A program made the translations under genes and the position numbers. Shown here in pieces: positions 35,383 to 41,051 of a DNA stretch of 64,000 nucleotides; the stretch's first letter is position 1; each line of letters opens with the position of its first letter. The notes below the pieces were generated by a model that did no database searches, had not been told where the DNA came from, and saw only the letters and a program-made list of their open reading frames with translations. This DNA comes from Psychromonas sp. psych-6C06 (lineage in GTDB: Bacteria > Pseudomonadota > Gammaproteobacteria > Enterobacterales > Psychromonadaceae): assembly GCF_002835465.1 (NCBI RefSeq), contig NZ_PIZM01000009.1:124001-188000 (forward strand), written 5' to 3'.

Positions 35383-36156
35383 TTAAAGCATCTTTGGCAC
35401 ACCGCTATGAAATTTAAAATCTTCATCTTCGCTAAGAATAAGTTGTGCTTCTGCTTGTCCAAAAAAGGTAATCCGCTCACTAATATCTTTGTTACTTTTA
35501 CCATTGTTAGCCACTTGCTCTGCTAATGTCAGGTAATCCTGATAATGTCGAGCTTCAGAGCGCAATAACGACAGGTAAAACTTATTCAGTTGCTGGTCAA
35601 GAAAGGGTGCTATTTTTGCAAAGCGTTCACAGGAGCGTGCTTCGATATAGGCACCACAAATTAACTTATCGATGAGTGTATTCGGCTCAAATGTGCTGAC
35701 ATGTGATAACAACGCTTTGGCATAACGGCTAGAGTCGATAAAACCAAATTGAATCTCGCGCTGTTCAATGATTTCAACGACTTGATAAAAATGGTGCAGC
35801 TCTTCTTTAATCAATAACACCATCTTATCAACTAACTCTTGAGCATAGGGGCTACCTTGCTTGATCTCGATATTTTTAGATAAGCCATTGGCGTTTGCAA
35901 GGCTTTGTAAGTTGCCTTGTTTACGAAAAACATAGTCTTTATAGGGCTGCAACCAATCCATCAATGCTTTGCCAGTTTCTTTATCAACTGCGTAACGACG
36001 AATTAGTAGCATGGCCGTTTGAGCAGCTTTTAACTCGCAAATCATATGATCCACAAGTAGCGCGTTTAGGTTTTCTGGCTGCTTCGCTTTTTGCACCCAA
36101 GCATCGGGTGTTTCGCAGTGTAAAAATTGCTGAATGGGGGCAAGTAACGTTTGCAC
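35383..36156 (-). CDS. miaE: tRNA 2-methylthio-N6-isopentenyladenosine hydroxylase
   Basis: 257 residues. A ferritin-like diiron protein with metal ligands in CELKAAQ, EELHHFY, EARSCERF and SEARHYQDY. It hydroxylates ms2i6A37 of tRNA using O2. The start is GTG (VQTLLAPIQQFLHC), which aligns with E. coli-type MiaE (LLAPVLEFLHC). GAAGAG serves as RBS. Confidence 0.93.
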   Translation of the reverse strand: MQTLLAPIQQFLHCETPDAWVQKAKQPENLNALLVDHMICELKAAQTAMLLIRRYAVDKETGKALMDWLQPYKDYVFRKQGNLQSLANANGLSKNIEIKQGSPYAQELVDKMVLLIKEELHHFYQVVEIIEQREIQFGFIDSSRYAKALLSHVSTFEPNTLIDKLICGAYIEARSCERFAKIAPFLDQQLNKFYLSLLRSEARHYQDYLTLAEQVANNGKSNKDISERITFFGQAEAQLILSEDEDFKFHSGVPKML

Positions 36157-36237: not shown

Positions 36238-37098
36238 CTATAACCAATCTGTTAAGGAAATACCTAAGCCAATGGTATTAGTATAATGGTCATACTCAAT
36301 CATGCTATTTCCGTAACCACTAAACACTTTGAAATAGCCTCTTACTCTATCGTGAATTGGAAAGCTCCACGCTGCTTCTACCGCGCCTTTACTAAAACCA
36401 CTTTCAAGATTATTTCTGCTCATCAAGGAAAAAGTATTTTGATTGTATTTATAAATGAGTCGTATTTTACCATGGCCATAATAGTCAGTTAAATCAGGGT
36501 TATTATCTGAACTCGCTGCTTCTGAAAAACGATACCAAGGATTAATGGAAACTGCTAAGTTATTATTTTCAATTATAAAGTAGCTGTTAAGTCGGTTCCA
36601 GCTTCGTGAAAGGGGTTCACTACGTCCATTTGATTGATGAGTAAAACCAATGGAAGCCATTTTGAATGTCCAGCCAAGCCCTAATGATGCATCTTGCTGC
36701 CAAGTAGCAAAAATTTCTGGTTCATAATTTGTTTCTCGAAATGGTGAGGACTTTTCAGTGTTATAGGCTTGCCAGATTGAGAGTTGTGTATAAGCAAAAT
36801 TTAGCGAGAGTGGTAAATCTGCAATGTTAGTCCAAACGGGAATTTTGAAGCTAATTTGAAACTGCATCTCGATAGGCTCAAACTCATTTTCTCCATCAGC
36901 GCCGAGGGGGTAACTACTGTTACTACTTATTTTATCATTAAAAACAAAAGGTAGTATGTAGGTGGGCTGATAAGGAATAATTGCAAACTTGTTATCTTTT
37001 ATCGCTTTTTCCTTTTTTAGGCGTTGATCAATGACGCTCTCTGCAGCAAAAGTTGTAAAACTCATCATAAAAACAGCCAGAGATAGTAGTAAACGCAT
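36238..37098 (-). CDS. pldA: Outer-membrane phospholipase A1
   Basis: 286 residues. The signal peptide MRLLLSLAVFMMSFTTFAAE precedes a 12-stranded barrel. The active site is intact: HQSNGR carries the catalytic His and Ser, and SWNRLNSYFIIENN the Asn of the Ser-His-Asn triad. Ca2+-dependent dimers degrade misplaced phospholipid in the outer leaflet. The first 18 codons and RBS are duplicated at 38827-38902, so the region directly upstream may no longer be the native promoter. Confidence 0.93.
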   Translation of the reverse strand: MRLLLSLAVFMMSFTTFAAESVIDQRLKKEKAIKDNKFAIIPYQPTYILPFVFNDKISSNSSYPLGADGENEFEPIEMQFQISFKIPVWTNIADLPLSLNFAYTQLSIWQAYNTEKSSPFRETNYEPEIFATWQQDASLGLGWTFKMASIGFTHQSNGRSEPLSRSWNRLNSYFIIENNNLAVSINPWYRFSEAASSDNNPDLTDYYGHGKIRLIYKYNQNTFSLMSRNNLESGFSKGAVEAAWSFPIHDRVRGYFKVFSGYGNSMIEYDHYTNTIGLGISLTDWL

Positions 37099-37119
37099 TT
37101 ATAGTTCCTTTATAAACAG
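37044..37119. repeat. 76-bp direct repeat, copy A (pldA 5' end)
   Basis: Covers the first 18 codons of pldA plus 21 bp upstream. Identical to 38827-38902 except for one C/T difference, in the same orientation, 1783 bp apart. The two copies bracket the accessory module. Confidence 0.95.
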
Positions 37120-37215
37120 CTTAGATTGCAAATAGCAGGTGCATAACTTGGATCACTAGAAAAGAGCACAGTTGAATATATGTTAATCGCCTTTTATTCG
37201 ACAAAAGACGCAGCA

Positions 37216-37400
37216 ATCAAAACCTATAAATAACTGACTTATCAACTAAGATGCCAGATTTACGCCTTAAAGAACATAGGCATGAAGCAAAATACAATCG
37301 CAAAGCAATTAAAAGTTAGCCAGTTGGCTATGAGAAGCGAGCTTTCTCTGGATATAGGCAAATGAGGTTGCCACACCAAGTAGACTGATTGCTTTAAGAG
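37216..37400 (+). pseudogene. Decayed N-terminus of an IS30-family transposase
   Basis: Read in one frame the DNA gives IKTYK, stop, then LTYQLRCQIYALKNIGMKQ and NTIAKQLKVSQLAMRSEL, then after a further stop GCHTK. This follows the start of IS30-type transposases (an LTYEQRYQIYAL block and a helix-turn-helix). A CAA-to-TAA change and a lost ATG disable it, and nothing of the catalytic DDE region is visible downstream. Identification rests on recalled family consensus. Confidence 0.6.
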
Positions 37401-37444
37401 AGTTAAAAATTTAAACGGTGAAGATCAGTGTATCTAGCAAGAAA

Positions 37445-37470
37445 CTGTCAGCCCGAGTTAAGGCTGACAG
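37445..37470 (-). terminator. Terminator after the immunity-like gene
   Basis: Perfect 9-bp stem CTGTCAGCC/GGCTGACAG, 20 bp past the stop, followed on this strand by TTTCTTGC. Confidence 0.65.
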
Positions 37471-37489
37471 CTTTATGACTGTTTTATTA

Positions 37490-38479
37490 TTAGGCTAAGC
37501 CAATACCTTGTAAGCTAAACTCGGGTGGGTTTTCAAATAACACTTCCTCGCGACTAGGAAATTCGCCTTTAATTAACCAGCTTGGAATATAAGGCGATTC
37601 AAAATCAGGGGTTTCACCCGTACGTTGGTAATGCAGTGCTAATATTCCGGTTAACCAGTGCATTAACATCGCTTCGTTAGCGAATAAGTCAATCGACTCG
37701 GCCCCTTTCGGGTCACCCGGCTGCGGGGCAAAGTCTGCGTAATATTCGTAGCTTGCTTGTATTGCCGATTCACAGGCTCGGGTTAAACTGGTTGGTTGTA
37801 AGCCCCAACAACTGGTTATGACGCTTAATAACGGATAATGTAAATAATGCACAGAAATTTCCGCTTGTAAACTGAGCTGCTTCTCAATCACCCCTCGCCC
37901 TGCAAATTGCATCGCCCCTGCTAAGCACTGTTTTTTCTGCTCTTCACTCACCTGCTCGGCAAAAAACGCTTTAAACACATGAAAGAAAGCTTTATCCATC
38001 TCTGGAATGCCTCTTCCTGCGGTATGATCTAAAAACTCAGCTGGGTAAGCTTGTAGCTCATCAACCACAAAGGGCTCTTTACATAAGGTGGCAGCCACGG
38101 CAGCATGCATCCAAACTCCATCGGGGGAAAACCGCCCGCGTTCAACCGGTTGTGGTTGCAGTACCAGCACCTGCTGCGCTAATTCGACGGGCACTGTGGT
38201 CTCTGGATTGAGGTGCATGCGAAAATGCATGCGCCCAAAATCACAGACATGGTATAACAACCACATGCAATGTGCCTTTGGCCAGTCCAACATCACCGCA
38301 TCAGTAAAATACCCCCAATAATCAGAGAGTAAGTGCGGCGCAGCATGTTGGATTTTCTCTTCTGTGAATAAGCTACTCAGTTGACTATTATCAGCCGAGA
38401 TATTCTTCAATAAGTACTGACTTCGTGAGTGTTTCTCACTTAACCAGAAGCCTTTATTATGATGCTGTTTAATATCCAT
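37490..38479 (-). CDS. Accessory protein, possibly an Imm49-like immunity protein
   Basis: 329 residues, mostly helical, no signal peptide and no membrane helix. Features seen: Trp-rich N-terminal part (DYWGYFTDAVMLDWPKAHCM), a WMHAAVAATLCKEP segment, and a C-terminal IPSWLIKGEFP. The helical repeats and ending recall the Imm49 family of polymorphic-toxin immunity proteins; I cannot confirm it. The start ATG has AAAGG upstream and overlaps the stop of a preceding open fragment. It is the only intact gene inside the segment bounded by the 76-bp repeats, which marks it as acquired. Confidence 0.45.
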   Translation of the reverse strand: MDIKQHHNKGFWLSEKHSRSQYLLKNISADNSQLSSLFTEEKIQHAAPHLLSDYWGYFTDAVMLDWPKAHCMWLLYHVCDFGRMHFRMHLNPETTVPVELAQQVLVLQPQPVERGRFSPDGVWMHAAVAATLCKEPFVVDELQAYPAEFLDHTAGRGIPEMDKAFFHVFKAFFAEQVSEEQKKQCLAGAMQFAGRGVIEKQLSLQAEISVHYLHYPLLSVITSCWGLQPTSLTRACESAIQASYEYYADFAPQPGDPKGAESIDLFANEAMLMHWLTGILALHYQRTGETPDFESPYIPSWLIKGEFPSREEVLFENPPEFSLQGIGLA

Positions 38480-38624
38480 TTAAATTACCTTTACCCTGTT
38501 GATAGTCTCGGATGGAAGTTGTCCCTAAGGTTCCGTCGTTTTTAATCTCTTGTATTACCATCTTATAATCAATGAGGTTATTTTTCTTAGCGTATCTTAA
38601 CGCATGATAATAAAGGGGAAGATG
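38469..38624 (-). pseudogene. Orphan C-terminal tail of a lost protein (toxin tail?)
   Basis: An open stretch of 51 codons with no start codon at its head, reading HLPLYYHALRYAKKNNL, then DYKMVIQEIKNDGTLG and ending YQQGKGNLNGY before TAA. The stop lies 11 bp inside the following gene. The composition is that of real protein. The arrangement, tail of one gene running into an immunity-like gene, is what displaced toxin-immunity cassettes look like. No family recognised. Confidence 0.4.
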
Positions 38625-38815
38625 CTAGCTAGAAAGGTACAGAAATACAACTACCCGATAGTGTGCTCTTCGCTATTTTTCAGCTTAATTGTACGCTGAG
38701 TCAGACAGTTAACGAAATAACCAATTCTTCAATTTTGTGTAAGCTAAATGCAATTCAGGTCAGGTCTTTCATTATACATTTAGAATGAAAAAAGTTTCAT
38801 TTAGGGGCGGAACAA

Positions 38816-38881
38816 TCAGCTCCGTCCAGCAAAAGTTGCAAAACTCATCATAAAAACAGCCAGAGATAGTAGTAAACGCAT
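38816..38881 (-). pseudogene. Truncated pldA leader (21 codons)
   Basis: The duplicated pldA RBS, ATG and signal-peptide codons give MRLLLSLAVFMMSFATFA, then GRS and a stop, because sequence beyond the repeat is unrelated. It would produce only a signal peptide. One Thr-to-Ala change separates it from the intact gene. Confidence 0.85.
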
Positions 38882-38902
38882 TTATAGTTCCTTTATAAAC
38901 AG
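38827..38902. repeat. 76-bp direct repeat, copy B
   Basis: Second copy of the pldA 5' end (75 of 76 identical), 77 bp upstream of recG. The junction at 38902/38903 is probably the original pldA upstream region. Confidence 0.95.
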
Positions 38903-38978
38903 TGTAAAGTAGTCGAGTGATGAAGTTGTTAGGTAGATTGCCTGTATTAGATACGCAAGCCCAGAATCAGGATCAATA

Positions 38979-41051
38979 ATGAAATTAGAGAAAGTCCCAT
39001 TAAGTGCGTTAAATGGTGTGGGTATTAAAATGGCAGAGCGTTTAGAGAGGCTTGGCTTATTTAGCGTTGCTGACCTGCTTTTCCATCTGCCTCTGCATTA
39101 TCAAGACCGAGCCTCAATTATTCCTATTGGCGAGTTACAGGATGGCATGCAGGTGAGTGTGCAAGGGCGTATCATCAGTAGCAATGTACAAATGGGTAAG
39201 CGTCGTATTTTAAAGTGTCAGATAGCTGATGAAACGGGGCGAGTGACGCTAAATTTCTTTCACTTTAACGCCTCACAAAAAAATAGCTTTCGTGAAGGGC
39301 AGTTAATCAAATGTTTTGGTGAATTTAAACGCGGTTACCAAGGCTTTGAAATTACCCACCCTGAATATACACTTATCCAGACCCGTGAAAGTGCGCAAAC
39401 TCAGGAAACCCTGACCCCTATCTATCCAATGACAGAAGGGTTGAAACAGAACGGTCTACGTAAGTTAGCCAGCCAAGCCGTGGAGATGTTAAAGCAAAAT
39501 AGCATTGATGAGTTATTACCTACACAGCTATTAAGCCATCCAATTAGTTTACAAGATGCCTTGTTATATCTGCATCAGCCACCGCCAGATGCCAACATTG
39601 AACAATTAGAAAACAAAACGCATCCAGCGCAACAGCGGTTAATTATTGAAGAGTTAATCGCGCAACAATTAAGTTTACTTGCCATGCGTGCAAGTGCACA
39701 AACACAACCTGCCATGACCATTAATGCGCAATCGGACTTACAAAAAGCATTATTAAACAACCTTGGTTTCTCGCCAACCAATGCGCAGAGCAGAGTCGCT
39801 CAGGAGATTGAGCAAGATTTATTGCAACCCTATCCCATGATGCGCTTAGTGCAAGGTGATGTTGGCTCTGGTAAAACGTTAGTGGCAGCGATGGCTGCAT
39901 TAAGTGTTATTGAGGCTGGTTATCAGGTCGCGTTAATGGCGCCGACAGAGTTACTTGCAGAGCAGCATTTTATTAATTTCCAGAAGTGGTTTGAGCCATT
40001 GGATATTCGTGTTGGCATGTTATCTGGCAAGATGAAAGTGAAAGAAAAACGTTCACAGACTGAAAATATACAACTCGGTCTCTCTAAAATGGTAGTGGGG
40101 ACCCATGCACTGTTTTCAGATAATGTCATTTTTAATAAGTTAGCATTGATTATTGTTGATGAACAACATCGCTTTGGTGTTCATCAGCGTTTAGCGTTAA
40201 GAGAGAAAGGAGTGGATGAAGCCTTTGCGCCTCATCAGCTGACCATGACAGCAACCCCTATTCCACGCACGTTAGCAATGACCGCCTATGCCGATTTAAA
40301 AGTTTCGATTATTGATGAACTTCCGCCCGGCAGAACCGCGATTCAAACGGTGGCCCTTGCTGATACGCGACGTGACGATATTATTAAACGGGTTTATGAG
40401 TCCTGTAAAAATGAGGGGCGACAGGTTTATTGGGTTTGTACTTTAATCGAAGAGTCAGAGGCGCTTGAATGCCAAGCCGCTGAAGATACAGCGAATAGCT
40501 TGCAACTCAGTTTACCTGATTTACATATTGGATTGGTGCATGGCCGCATGAAAGGCGATGAAAAACAGTATGTGATGGATGCCTTTAAAGCAGGAGAGTT
40601 AGACTTGTTAGTTGCCACGACAGTCATTGAAGTCGGCGTGGATGTGCCTAATGCGAGTTTAATGATTATCGAAAACCCTGAGCGGTTAGGGCTTTCACAA
40701 CTGCACCAGTTACGTGGCCGTGTTGGCCGTGGCAGTGTCGCTAGCCACTGTGTTTTATTGTATAAAAATCCATTGTCATTAACGGCTAAAAAGCGTTTGC
40801 AAATTCTGCGCGAAAGCAACGATGGTTTTTATATCTCAGAGCAAGATTTACTCATTCGAGGCCCAGGTGAAGTTTTAGGCACAAAGCAAACGGGAGTCGC
40901 CCAATTTAAAATCGCTGACCTACTGCGCGACCAAGCATTGGTACCTTACTCTTTACAATTAGCAGAGCAAATTATTGCCCAGCACCCCACGCTTATCAGC
41001 GCGCTAACAACACGTTGGTTAGGTGAAAAACAGCATTATGCGCATGCTTAA
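38979..41051 (+). CDS. recG: ATP-dependent DNA helicase RecG
   Basis: 690 residues. N-terminal wedge/OB domain, Walker A GDVGSGKT in the first helicase domain, DEQH box (IIVDEQHRFGVHQR), the TMTATPIPRTLAMT motif, and motif VI LHQLRGRVGRGS. It remodels stalled forks and Holliday junctions. Overlaps the start of the AsmA-like gene by 14 bp. Confidence 0.97.
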   Translation: MKLEKVPLSALNGVGIKMAERLERLGLFSVADLLFHLPLHYQDRASIIPIGELQDGMQVSVQGRIISSNVQMGKRRILKCQIADETGRVTLNFFHFNASQKNSFREGQLIKCFGEFKRGYQGFEITHPEYTLIQTRESAQTQETLTPIYPMTEGLKQNGLRKLASQAVEMLKQNSIDELLPTQLLSHPISLQDALLYLHQPPPDANIEQLENKTHPAQQRLIIEELIAQQLSLLAMRASAQTQPAMTINAQSDLQKALLNNLGFSPTNAQSRVAQEIEQDLLQPYPMMRLVQGDVGSGKTLVAAMAALSVIEAGYQVALMAPTELLAEQHFINFQKWFEPLDIRVGMLSGKMKVKEKRSQTENIQLGLSKMVVGTHALFSDNVIFNKLALIIVDEQHRFGVHQRLALREKGVDEAFAPHQLTMTATPIPRTLAMTAYADLKVSIIDELPPGRTAIQTVALADTRRDDIIKRVYESCKNEGRQVYWVCTLIEESEALECQAAEDTANSLQLSLPDLHIGLVHGRMKGDEKQYVMDAFKAGELDLLVATTVIEVGVDVPNASLMIIENPERLGLSQLHQLRGRVGRGSVASHCVLLYKNPLSLTAKKRLQILRESNDGFYISEQDLLIRGPGEVLGTKQTGVAQFKIADLLRDQALVPYSLQLAEQIIAQHPTLISALTTRWLGEKQHYAHA

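What the first reader, a model, noticed from the sequence alone, without database searches (positions are those of the whole stretch)
37044..38902. Accessory module bracketed by a 76-bp direct repeat of the pldA 5' end
Two copies of the same 76 bp (RBS, ATG and signal-peptide codons of pldA) lie 1783 bp apart in the same orientation with one mismatch. Between them is one intact gene, an orphan gene tail and an IS30-type remnant. This is the footprint of a recent insertion between pldA and recG; near-identity argues for recent origin or gene conversion.
Basis: partly seen in the sequence, partly recalled or inferred. Interest (0 to 1): 0.75.

Follow-up and report, generated by a model that had tools for sequence, protein, structure and literature searches.

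The report
Immunity gene trapped between duplicated leaders
A marine bacterium carries a small patch of mobile-DNA debris with one intact gene that looks like immunity to a rival's toxin, wedged between two copies of the start of a phospholipase gene; it is an unusual but understandable insertion, not a new kind of system.

Summary
The repeat is real: 37044-37119 and 38827-38902, 76 bp, one mismatch, the only two copies found in the genome. The genus is Psychromonas. In the 15 relatives (of 23) whose pldA-recG interval I had, it is short (88-180 bp; 1880 here). The insert holds the left end of an IS30-family element (37120-37373, decayed); an intact Imm49-family immunity gene (37490-38479); a 51-codon remnant of its toxin gene, overlapping it by 11 bases; and the end of a REP-transposase element. 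No full toxin was found. The 76 bp is not this element's ordinary target duplication: 9 of 13 full copies show 3 bp, none a long one. The repeat (1/76 changed) also looks much younger than the decay of the IS remnant (21/147), so 'footprint of a recent insertion' is half right. I favour an IS-centred local duplication, later homogenised or renewed, that left pldA's leader and recG's upstream region both intact. The parts are known kinds; the combination is mildly unusual.

The parts
36238..37098 (-). pldA, outer-membrane phospholipase A, complete (286 aa)
   Evidence: Pfam PLA1 E 9e-96
37044..37119 (-). repeat copy 1: 21 bases upstream of the start and the first 18 codons of pldA; ends in CAG at the IS border
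37120..37373 (+). left end and 5' part of an IS30-family element, decayed (two in-frame stops), starting at the end of repeat copy 1
37436..37475 (-). strong hairpin after the Imm49 gene, possible terminator
   Evidence: fold z -3.9, 0 of 200 shuffles as good; not listed by the terminator scan, which asks for a longer T run
37490..38479 (-). intact orphan immunity gene, Imm49 family (329 aa)
   Evidence: Pfam PF15575, 36.7 bits, gathering 30.1; no NCBIfam family; homologues in G019 (56%) and G013 (45%)
38469..38624 (-). remnant of the toxin gene's 3' end: open stretch of 51 codons and stop, no start, overlaps the Imm49 start by 11 bases
   Evidence: 19 of 36 aligned residues identical to the end of the G013 hemagglutinin-type protein that precedes Imm49 there
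38748..38826 (+). end of a REP-associated tyrosine transposase type element, truncated; carries a promoter-like site facing the Imm49 gene
38827..38902 (-). repeat copy 2: pldA leader remnant with a 21-codon open frame, contiguous with the native recG upstream region
38903..38978 (.). native pldA-recG intergenic DNA, joined to copy 2 as in G009
38979..41051 (+). recG, complete (690 aa)

Best explanation
Shown: in this Psychromonas lineage a 1.7-kb patch of mobile-DNA debris sits in the divergent pldA-recG interval, its left border is the end of an IS30-family element, and its only intact gene is an Imm49-type immunity gene next to a mere remnant of its toxin gene. Inferred: an IS30-type element inserted 21 bp upstream of the pldA start together with a local duplication of the 76 bp next to it (an IS-centred, or 'unflanked', duplication). 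That left the pldA leader and ORF whole on one side and the native region upstream of recG whole on the other, where a plain insertion would have split the conserved 40-bp block between the genes. The right part of the IS was then replaced or overrun by a fragment carrying the toxin remnant, Imm49 and a REP-transposase end, perhaps from a contact-dependent-inhibition locus like the one that lies near recG in Psychromonas sp. Urea-02u-13. Inferred: Imm49 was kept because it protects against neighbours that deliver the toxin. Inferred: the two 76-bp copies have been homogenised by gene conversion, or the duplication was renewed, after the IS remnant decayed.
For: Empty site with a 40-bp identical block across the joint in G009, although recG synonymous differences between the two are near saturation. 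15 of 15 available pldA-recG intervals of relatives are short. Left border at the IS left end: the local match starts at 37120 in 10 of 21 aligned copies and 9-19 bases further in in the other 11. Family assignments. Toxin remnant overlapping Imm49 and the gene pair intact in G013. The G013 toxin C-terminus finds no match in G000. About 8 stops expected in Imm49 had it drifted as long as the IS remnant, none seen. IS-centred duplications are documented (PMC13423834, abstract and passages; PMC11708052, abstract and one section).
Against: The right border is not the IS30 right end, so 'IS-centred' rests on one end only. The repeat looks younger than the IS decay (1/76 against 21/147, Fisher p 0.0015), which a single event does not explain without homogenisation. 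The IS-centred cases in those papers are far longer (for example 17,585 and 59,943 bp), and the unflanked ones in E. coli were exclusively IS1. No second strain of this species was available. Expression and protection are untested.
Confidence: 0.45

Rival explanations
1. Old insertion, young duplication. The module was inserted with a 3-bp CAG target duplication; much later a tandem duplication from the CAG in pldA (37044) to the CAG at the module's right end arose by microhomology, and the second module copy was then lost by precise excision between its CAG repeats, restoring the native recG joint.
For: CAG stands at both ends of the 76 bp and directly at both borders of the module (37117-37119 and 38827-38829); this IS family shows 3-bp target duplications in 9 of 13 full copies; explains why the IS is decayed and the repeat nearly perfect.
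Against: Needs two further events; the module's right end has no recognisable IS30 end; a three-base coincidence is cheap.
Confidence: 0.25
2. Local translocation. The Imm49/toxin locus sat on the far side of recG, as in G013 and G019; a tandem duplication joined the toxin region to pldA codon 18, and an IS30-adjacent deletion then removed the first recG copy.
For: A match to this Imm49 is in only 3 of 24 Psychromonas genomes and in each within 10 kb of recG; in G013 and G019 it lies between ntrC and recG in the same orientation relative to recG as here.
Against: The Imm49 of G000 is closer to that of G019 (56%) than to that of the more closely related G013 (45%); the bcr-ntrC interval of G000 is 34 bp with no trace; needs a second loss; the repeat-versus-IS age problem remains.
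Confidence: 0.18
3. Single transposition of a composite element with a 76-bp target duplication.
For: IS left end at the left border and direct repeats at both borders.
Against: This IS family shows 3-bp duplications in 9 of 13 full copies and no long one in any of 13; no right IS end.
Confidence: 0.08
4. Assembly error.
For: Draft genome of 32 contigs.
Against: The locus lies inside a 216-kb contig; both junctions have unique flanks, and a misjoin would still need a further 76-bp copy, of which one search finds none.
Confidence: 0.03

Closest known systems
Orphan cdiA-CT/cdiI modules of contact-dependent growth inhibition loci (PMC3150448, passages read)
   Same: Toxin fragment without start followed by an intact immunity gene, in company with mobile-element debris; a full toxin-immunity pair exists in a relative.
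   Different: Here it lies beside no cdi locus, only a short end of the toxin gene remains, and it is bracketed by a host-gene repeat.
Imm49 immunity family (PMC3482391, three table passages read)
   Same: Pfam PF15575 above gathering; toxin remnant directly upstream.
   Different: Toxin domain truncated here; the partner class is not established by a family hit.
IS-centred (unflanked) duplications (PMC13423834, abstract and passages; PMC11708052, abstract and one section)
   Same: Direct copies of host DNA with IS sequence between them and none outside.
   Different: 76 bp instead of many kilobases; only one IS end left; IS30 family instead of IS1 or IS481.

Membership tests
Imm49 immunity proteins | Pfam PF15575 over its gathering score | tested here: met
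   36.7 bits against 30.1; G019 homologue 31.6, G013 homologue 24.6, below the cut-off; no NCBIfam family
Imm49 immunity proteins | encoded directly after a polymorphic-toxin C-terminus | tested here: met
   toxin remnant overlapping by 11 bases; gene pair intact in G013; in G019 no toxin gene is beside it
Imm49 immunity proteins | cognate toxin of the restriction-endonuclease fold (Tox-REase-1 or -6 per PMC3482391) | tested here: inconclusive
   the G013 toxin C-terminus gave no significant Pfam family; too little of it is left in the window
Imm49 immunity proteins | all-alpha fold | tested here: inconclusive
   mostly helical model, but mean pLDDT 40
IS30-family element (37120-37373) | homology to a full element with IS30 transposase and terminal repeats | tested here: met
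IS30-family element (37120-37373) | both ends and an intact transposase | tested here: not met
   right end absent, two in-frame stops; it is a remnant
IS-centred unflanked duplication | direct copies of host DNA on both sides of an IS, none outside | tested here: met
IS-centred unflanked duplication | each IS end abuts one copy | tested here: not met
   left end abuts copy 1; copy 2 abuts a different element's truncated end
Ordinary IS30-type target duplication | short (3 bp) duplication of the target | tested here: not met
   76 bp here; 3 bp in 9 of 13 full copies, none visible in 4
Orphan cdiA-CT/cdiI module | toxin-CT fragment plus functional immunity gene | tested here: inconclusive
   anatomy fits; function not testable here

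The most novel reading that the evidence does not exclude
The near-identical 76-bp repeats act as a scarless off-switch: recombination between them removes the immunity gene and rejoins pldA to its native upstream region, so that part of the population sheds the immunity cassette and regains normal pldA control, while selection by toxin-bearing neighbours keeps the repeat and the cassette together.
Probability: 0.06. Interest if true: 0.6.

Novelty: new member of a known kind. Interest (0 to 1): 0.3.

Why it matters
It is a clear natural example of how an orphan immunity gene can settle next to core genes without breaking either: the duplication keeps both divergent genes' start regions whole. 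If short IS-centred duplications are common, target-site searches that expect a few bases would miss them, and they would mark insertions that selection tolerated in tight divergent promoters.

Tried and rejected
Rejected or empty: (1) 76 bp as the ordinary IS30-type target duplication. (2) A second IS30 end at the right border. (3) The repeat as a dispersed element: only two copies found in the genome. (4) Another copy of the IS remnant or of the G013 toxin C-terminus in the own genome: none found. The one TPS-domain match in the own genome lies on another contig; I saw only part of its open frames and did not examine it further. (6) PADLOC, NCBIfam and PDB sequence searches with Imm49 gave nothing. 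(7) The AlphaFold model was too poor to use (pLDDT 40), so no fold search was made. (8) Literature: five searches. Searches gave the papers cited; in the listings (8 of 480 papers shown; 3 papers) I saw nothing on this architecture.

Corrections to myself: the first count of IS decay (27 of 160) was inflated by misalignment at the first bases; I use 21 of 147 with the first 20 bases left out. The branch length 0.29 still contains that misalignment. Three rearranged IS copies (L081, L082, L083) were dropped from that count, leaving 18. The IS copies were a choice of mine from the longer list. A note says that the IS transposase start was lost; an upstream start of the longer frame is still there, so I claim only the two in-frame stops. 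In one search all matches besides the own one are weak (E 1e-4 to 0.1); I trust only the repeated 38748-38783 end.

Full report
Observation. The window holds two 76-bp copies at 37044-37119 and 38827-38902, 1783 bp apart, same orientation, one mismatch. The tool extends them to 84 nt at 95%, but the extra 8 columns match at only 5. It is the only direct repeat of 40 bp or more that the tool finds in the 64 kb (16-base seed), and a search of the own genome finds just these two places. The repeat is the 5' end of pldA (Pfam PLA1): 21 bases upstream of the start, and the first 18 codons.

Organism. G006 has the contig length that I recall for P. ingrahamii; that is recall, not a test.

Empty site. 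Of 23 other genus genomes searched, I had pldA and recG side by side in 15; in all 15 the interval is short, 88-180 bp, against 1880 bp here. Seven of those lengths are extrapolated to the pldA start from an alignment that begins at residue 8 to 21. In G013 and G016 there is no pldA beside recG; for the other six I did not have the interval. The closest by RecG, G009 (90% identical), has a single copy and matches G000 copy 2 over 40 identical bases across the joint (38874-38913, counted from the alignment; 21 of them found as an exact match once in G000 and once in G009). Synonymous differences in recG between the two are near saturation (0.74 of sites), so this block is strongly conserved. 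The joint at copy 2 is thus ancestral, and the joint at copy 1 (37119/37120) is new. G013 and G016 keep the AAACAGTGTAAAGT core although pldA is gone, which suggests that this part belongs to recG.

What is inside. From left to right: (a) 37120-37373 matches the left end of an IS30-family element (1097 bp in G006; NCBIfam IS30 transposase). In 10 of 21 aligned copies the local match starts at 37120 itself, in the other 11 it starts 9-19 bases further in. The remnant has two in-frame stops. (b) A strong hairpin at about 37436-37475, which the terminator scan did not list. (c) 37490-38479, minus strand, intact, Pfam Imm49. (d) 38469-38624, minus strand, an open stretch of 51 codons without a start, overlapping Imm49 by 11 bases; 36 of its residues align, 19 identical, with the end of the G013 protein that precedes Imm49 there. 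That G013 protein carries DUF637, and the protein before it a TPS secretion domain. (e) About 38748-38826, the end of an element which in a relative carries a REP-associated tyrosine transposase, with a 10-of-12 promoter-like site facing Imm49 (10 promoter-like sites in the region against 6.9 expected, so weak).

Function of the cargo. A search for the G013 toxin C-terminus hits 1 of 24 genus genomes, G013 itself, and not G000, so this Imm49 has no full partner that I can find; a toxin too diverged for that search is not excluded. Matches to this Imm49 occur in 3 of 24 genomes; in G019 no toxin gene stands beside it. If Imm49 had drifted like the IS remnant about 8 stop codons would be expected; none is present. 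Protection against toxin-bearing neighbours is the usual reading of orphan immunity genes (PMC3150448, passages read). It is inferred here. Pfam gave no significant family for the G013 C-terminus, so the restriction-endonuclease class reported for Imm49 partners (PMC3482391, table passages) is not established here.

How the repeat arose. The IS family makes 3-bp target duplications: 9 of 13 full copies (6 of the 13 from G006) show one exactly at the edges, 4 do not, and none shares a word longer than 9 bases between its 200-base flanks (the 9 are my reading of the printed flanks, since the script's own TSD column let the edges slide). So 76 bp is not an ordinary target duplication. CAG stands at both ends of the 76 bp and at both borders of the module, the right length for a target duplication, but a three-base match is weak. 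The right border shows no IS30 end. IS-centred duplications without flanking IS copies are reported from laboratory evolution (PMC13423834, abstract and passages: 27 unflanked of 106 in E. coli), and one arose with an IS481 element and no target duplication (PMC11708052, abstract and one section). I take a very short form of this as most likely, because it leaves both divergent genes' start regions intact. That benefit is inference.

The unsolved point. The IS remnant differs at 21 of 147 sites that are invariant in 18 other copies; the repeat differs at 1 of 76 (Fisher p 0.0015; chance of at most 1 in 76 at that rate 1e-4, or 0.006 at the lower confidence bound). Copy 1 is under selection and part of copy 2 probably too, which softens this. 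Either the copies were homogenised, or the duplication is younger than the IS, or the IS remnant was already decayed when it arrived.

Local history. In G013 and G019 the Imm49 gene lies between ntrC and recG, in the same orientation relative to recG as here; in G000 the bcr-ntrC interval is 34 bp, and in G009, which has no Imm49 match, it is about 0.1 kb. That all three Imm49 genes found lie within 10 kb of recG seems unlikely to be chance (my judgement, not computed), which keeps a local translocation open, although the protein distances (56% to G019, 45% to the closer relative G013) do not fit simple descent.

Verdict. A real, lineage-specific insertion with an orphan immunity gene; known kinds of parts, with a modestly unusual 76-bp duplication.

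Noticed in passing
L034 16187-16530 (G013) and L042 2150-2496 (G016): Two close relatives lack pldA beside recG; G013 seems to keep a decayed 5' remnant of it next to the conserved AAACAGTGTAAAGT core.
   Followed up: partly
window 38874-38913: A 40-bp block spanning the pldA RBS and the recG upstream region is identical between G000 and G009 although recG synonymous sites are near saturation; it may be a regulatory site or promoter.
   Followed up: partly
window 36238-37098: PldA is only 64% identical to that of G009 while RecG is 90% identical, lower than other pairs of relatives would suggest; pldA may have been replaced in one of the two.
   Followed up: partly
L034 253-7626 (G013): A TPS-domain protein and a DUF637 hemagglutinin-type toxin protein are two separate ORFs 17 bases apart before Imm49, perhaps a split CdiA-like gene.
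   Followed up: no
window 35383-36156: miaE lies between rhtB and pldA here and next to recG in G013, but G009 has rhtB directly beside pldA.
   Followed up: no
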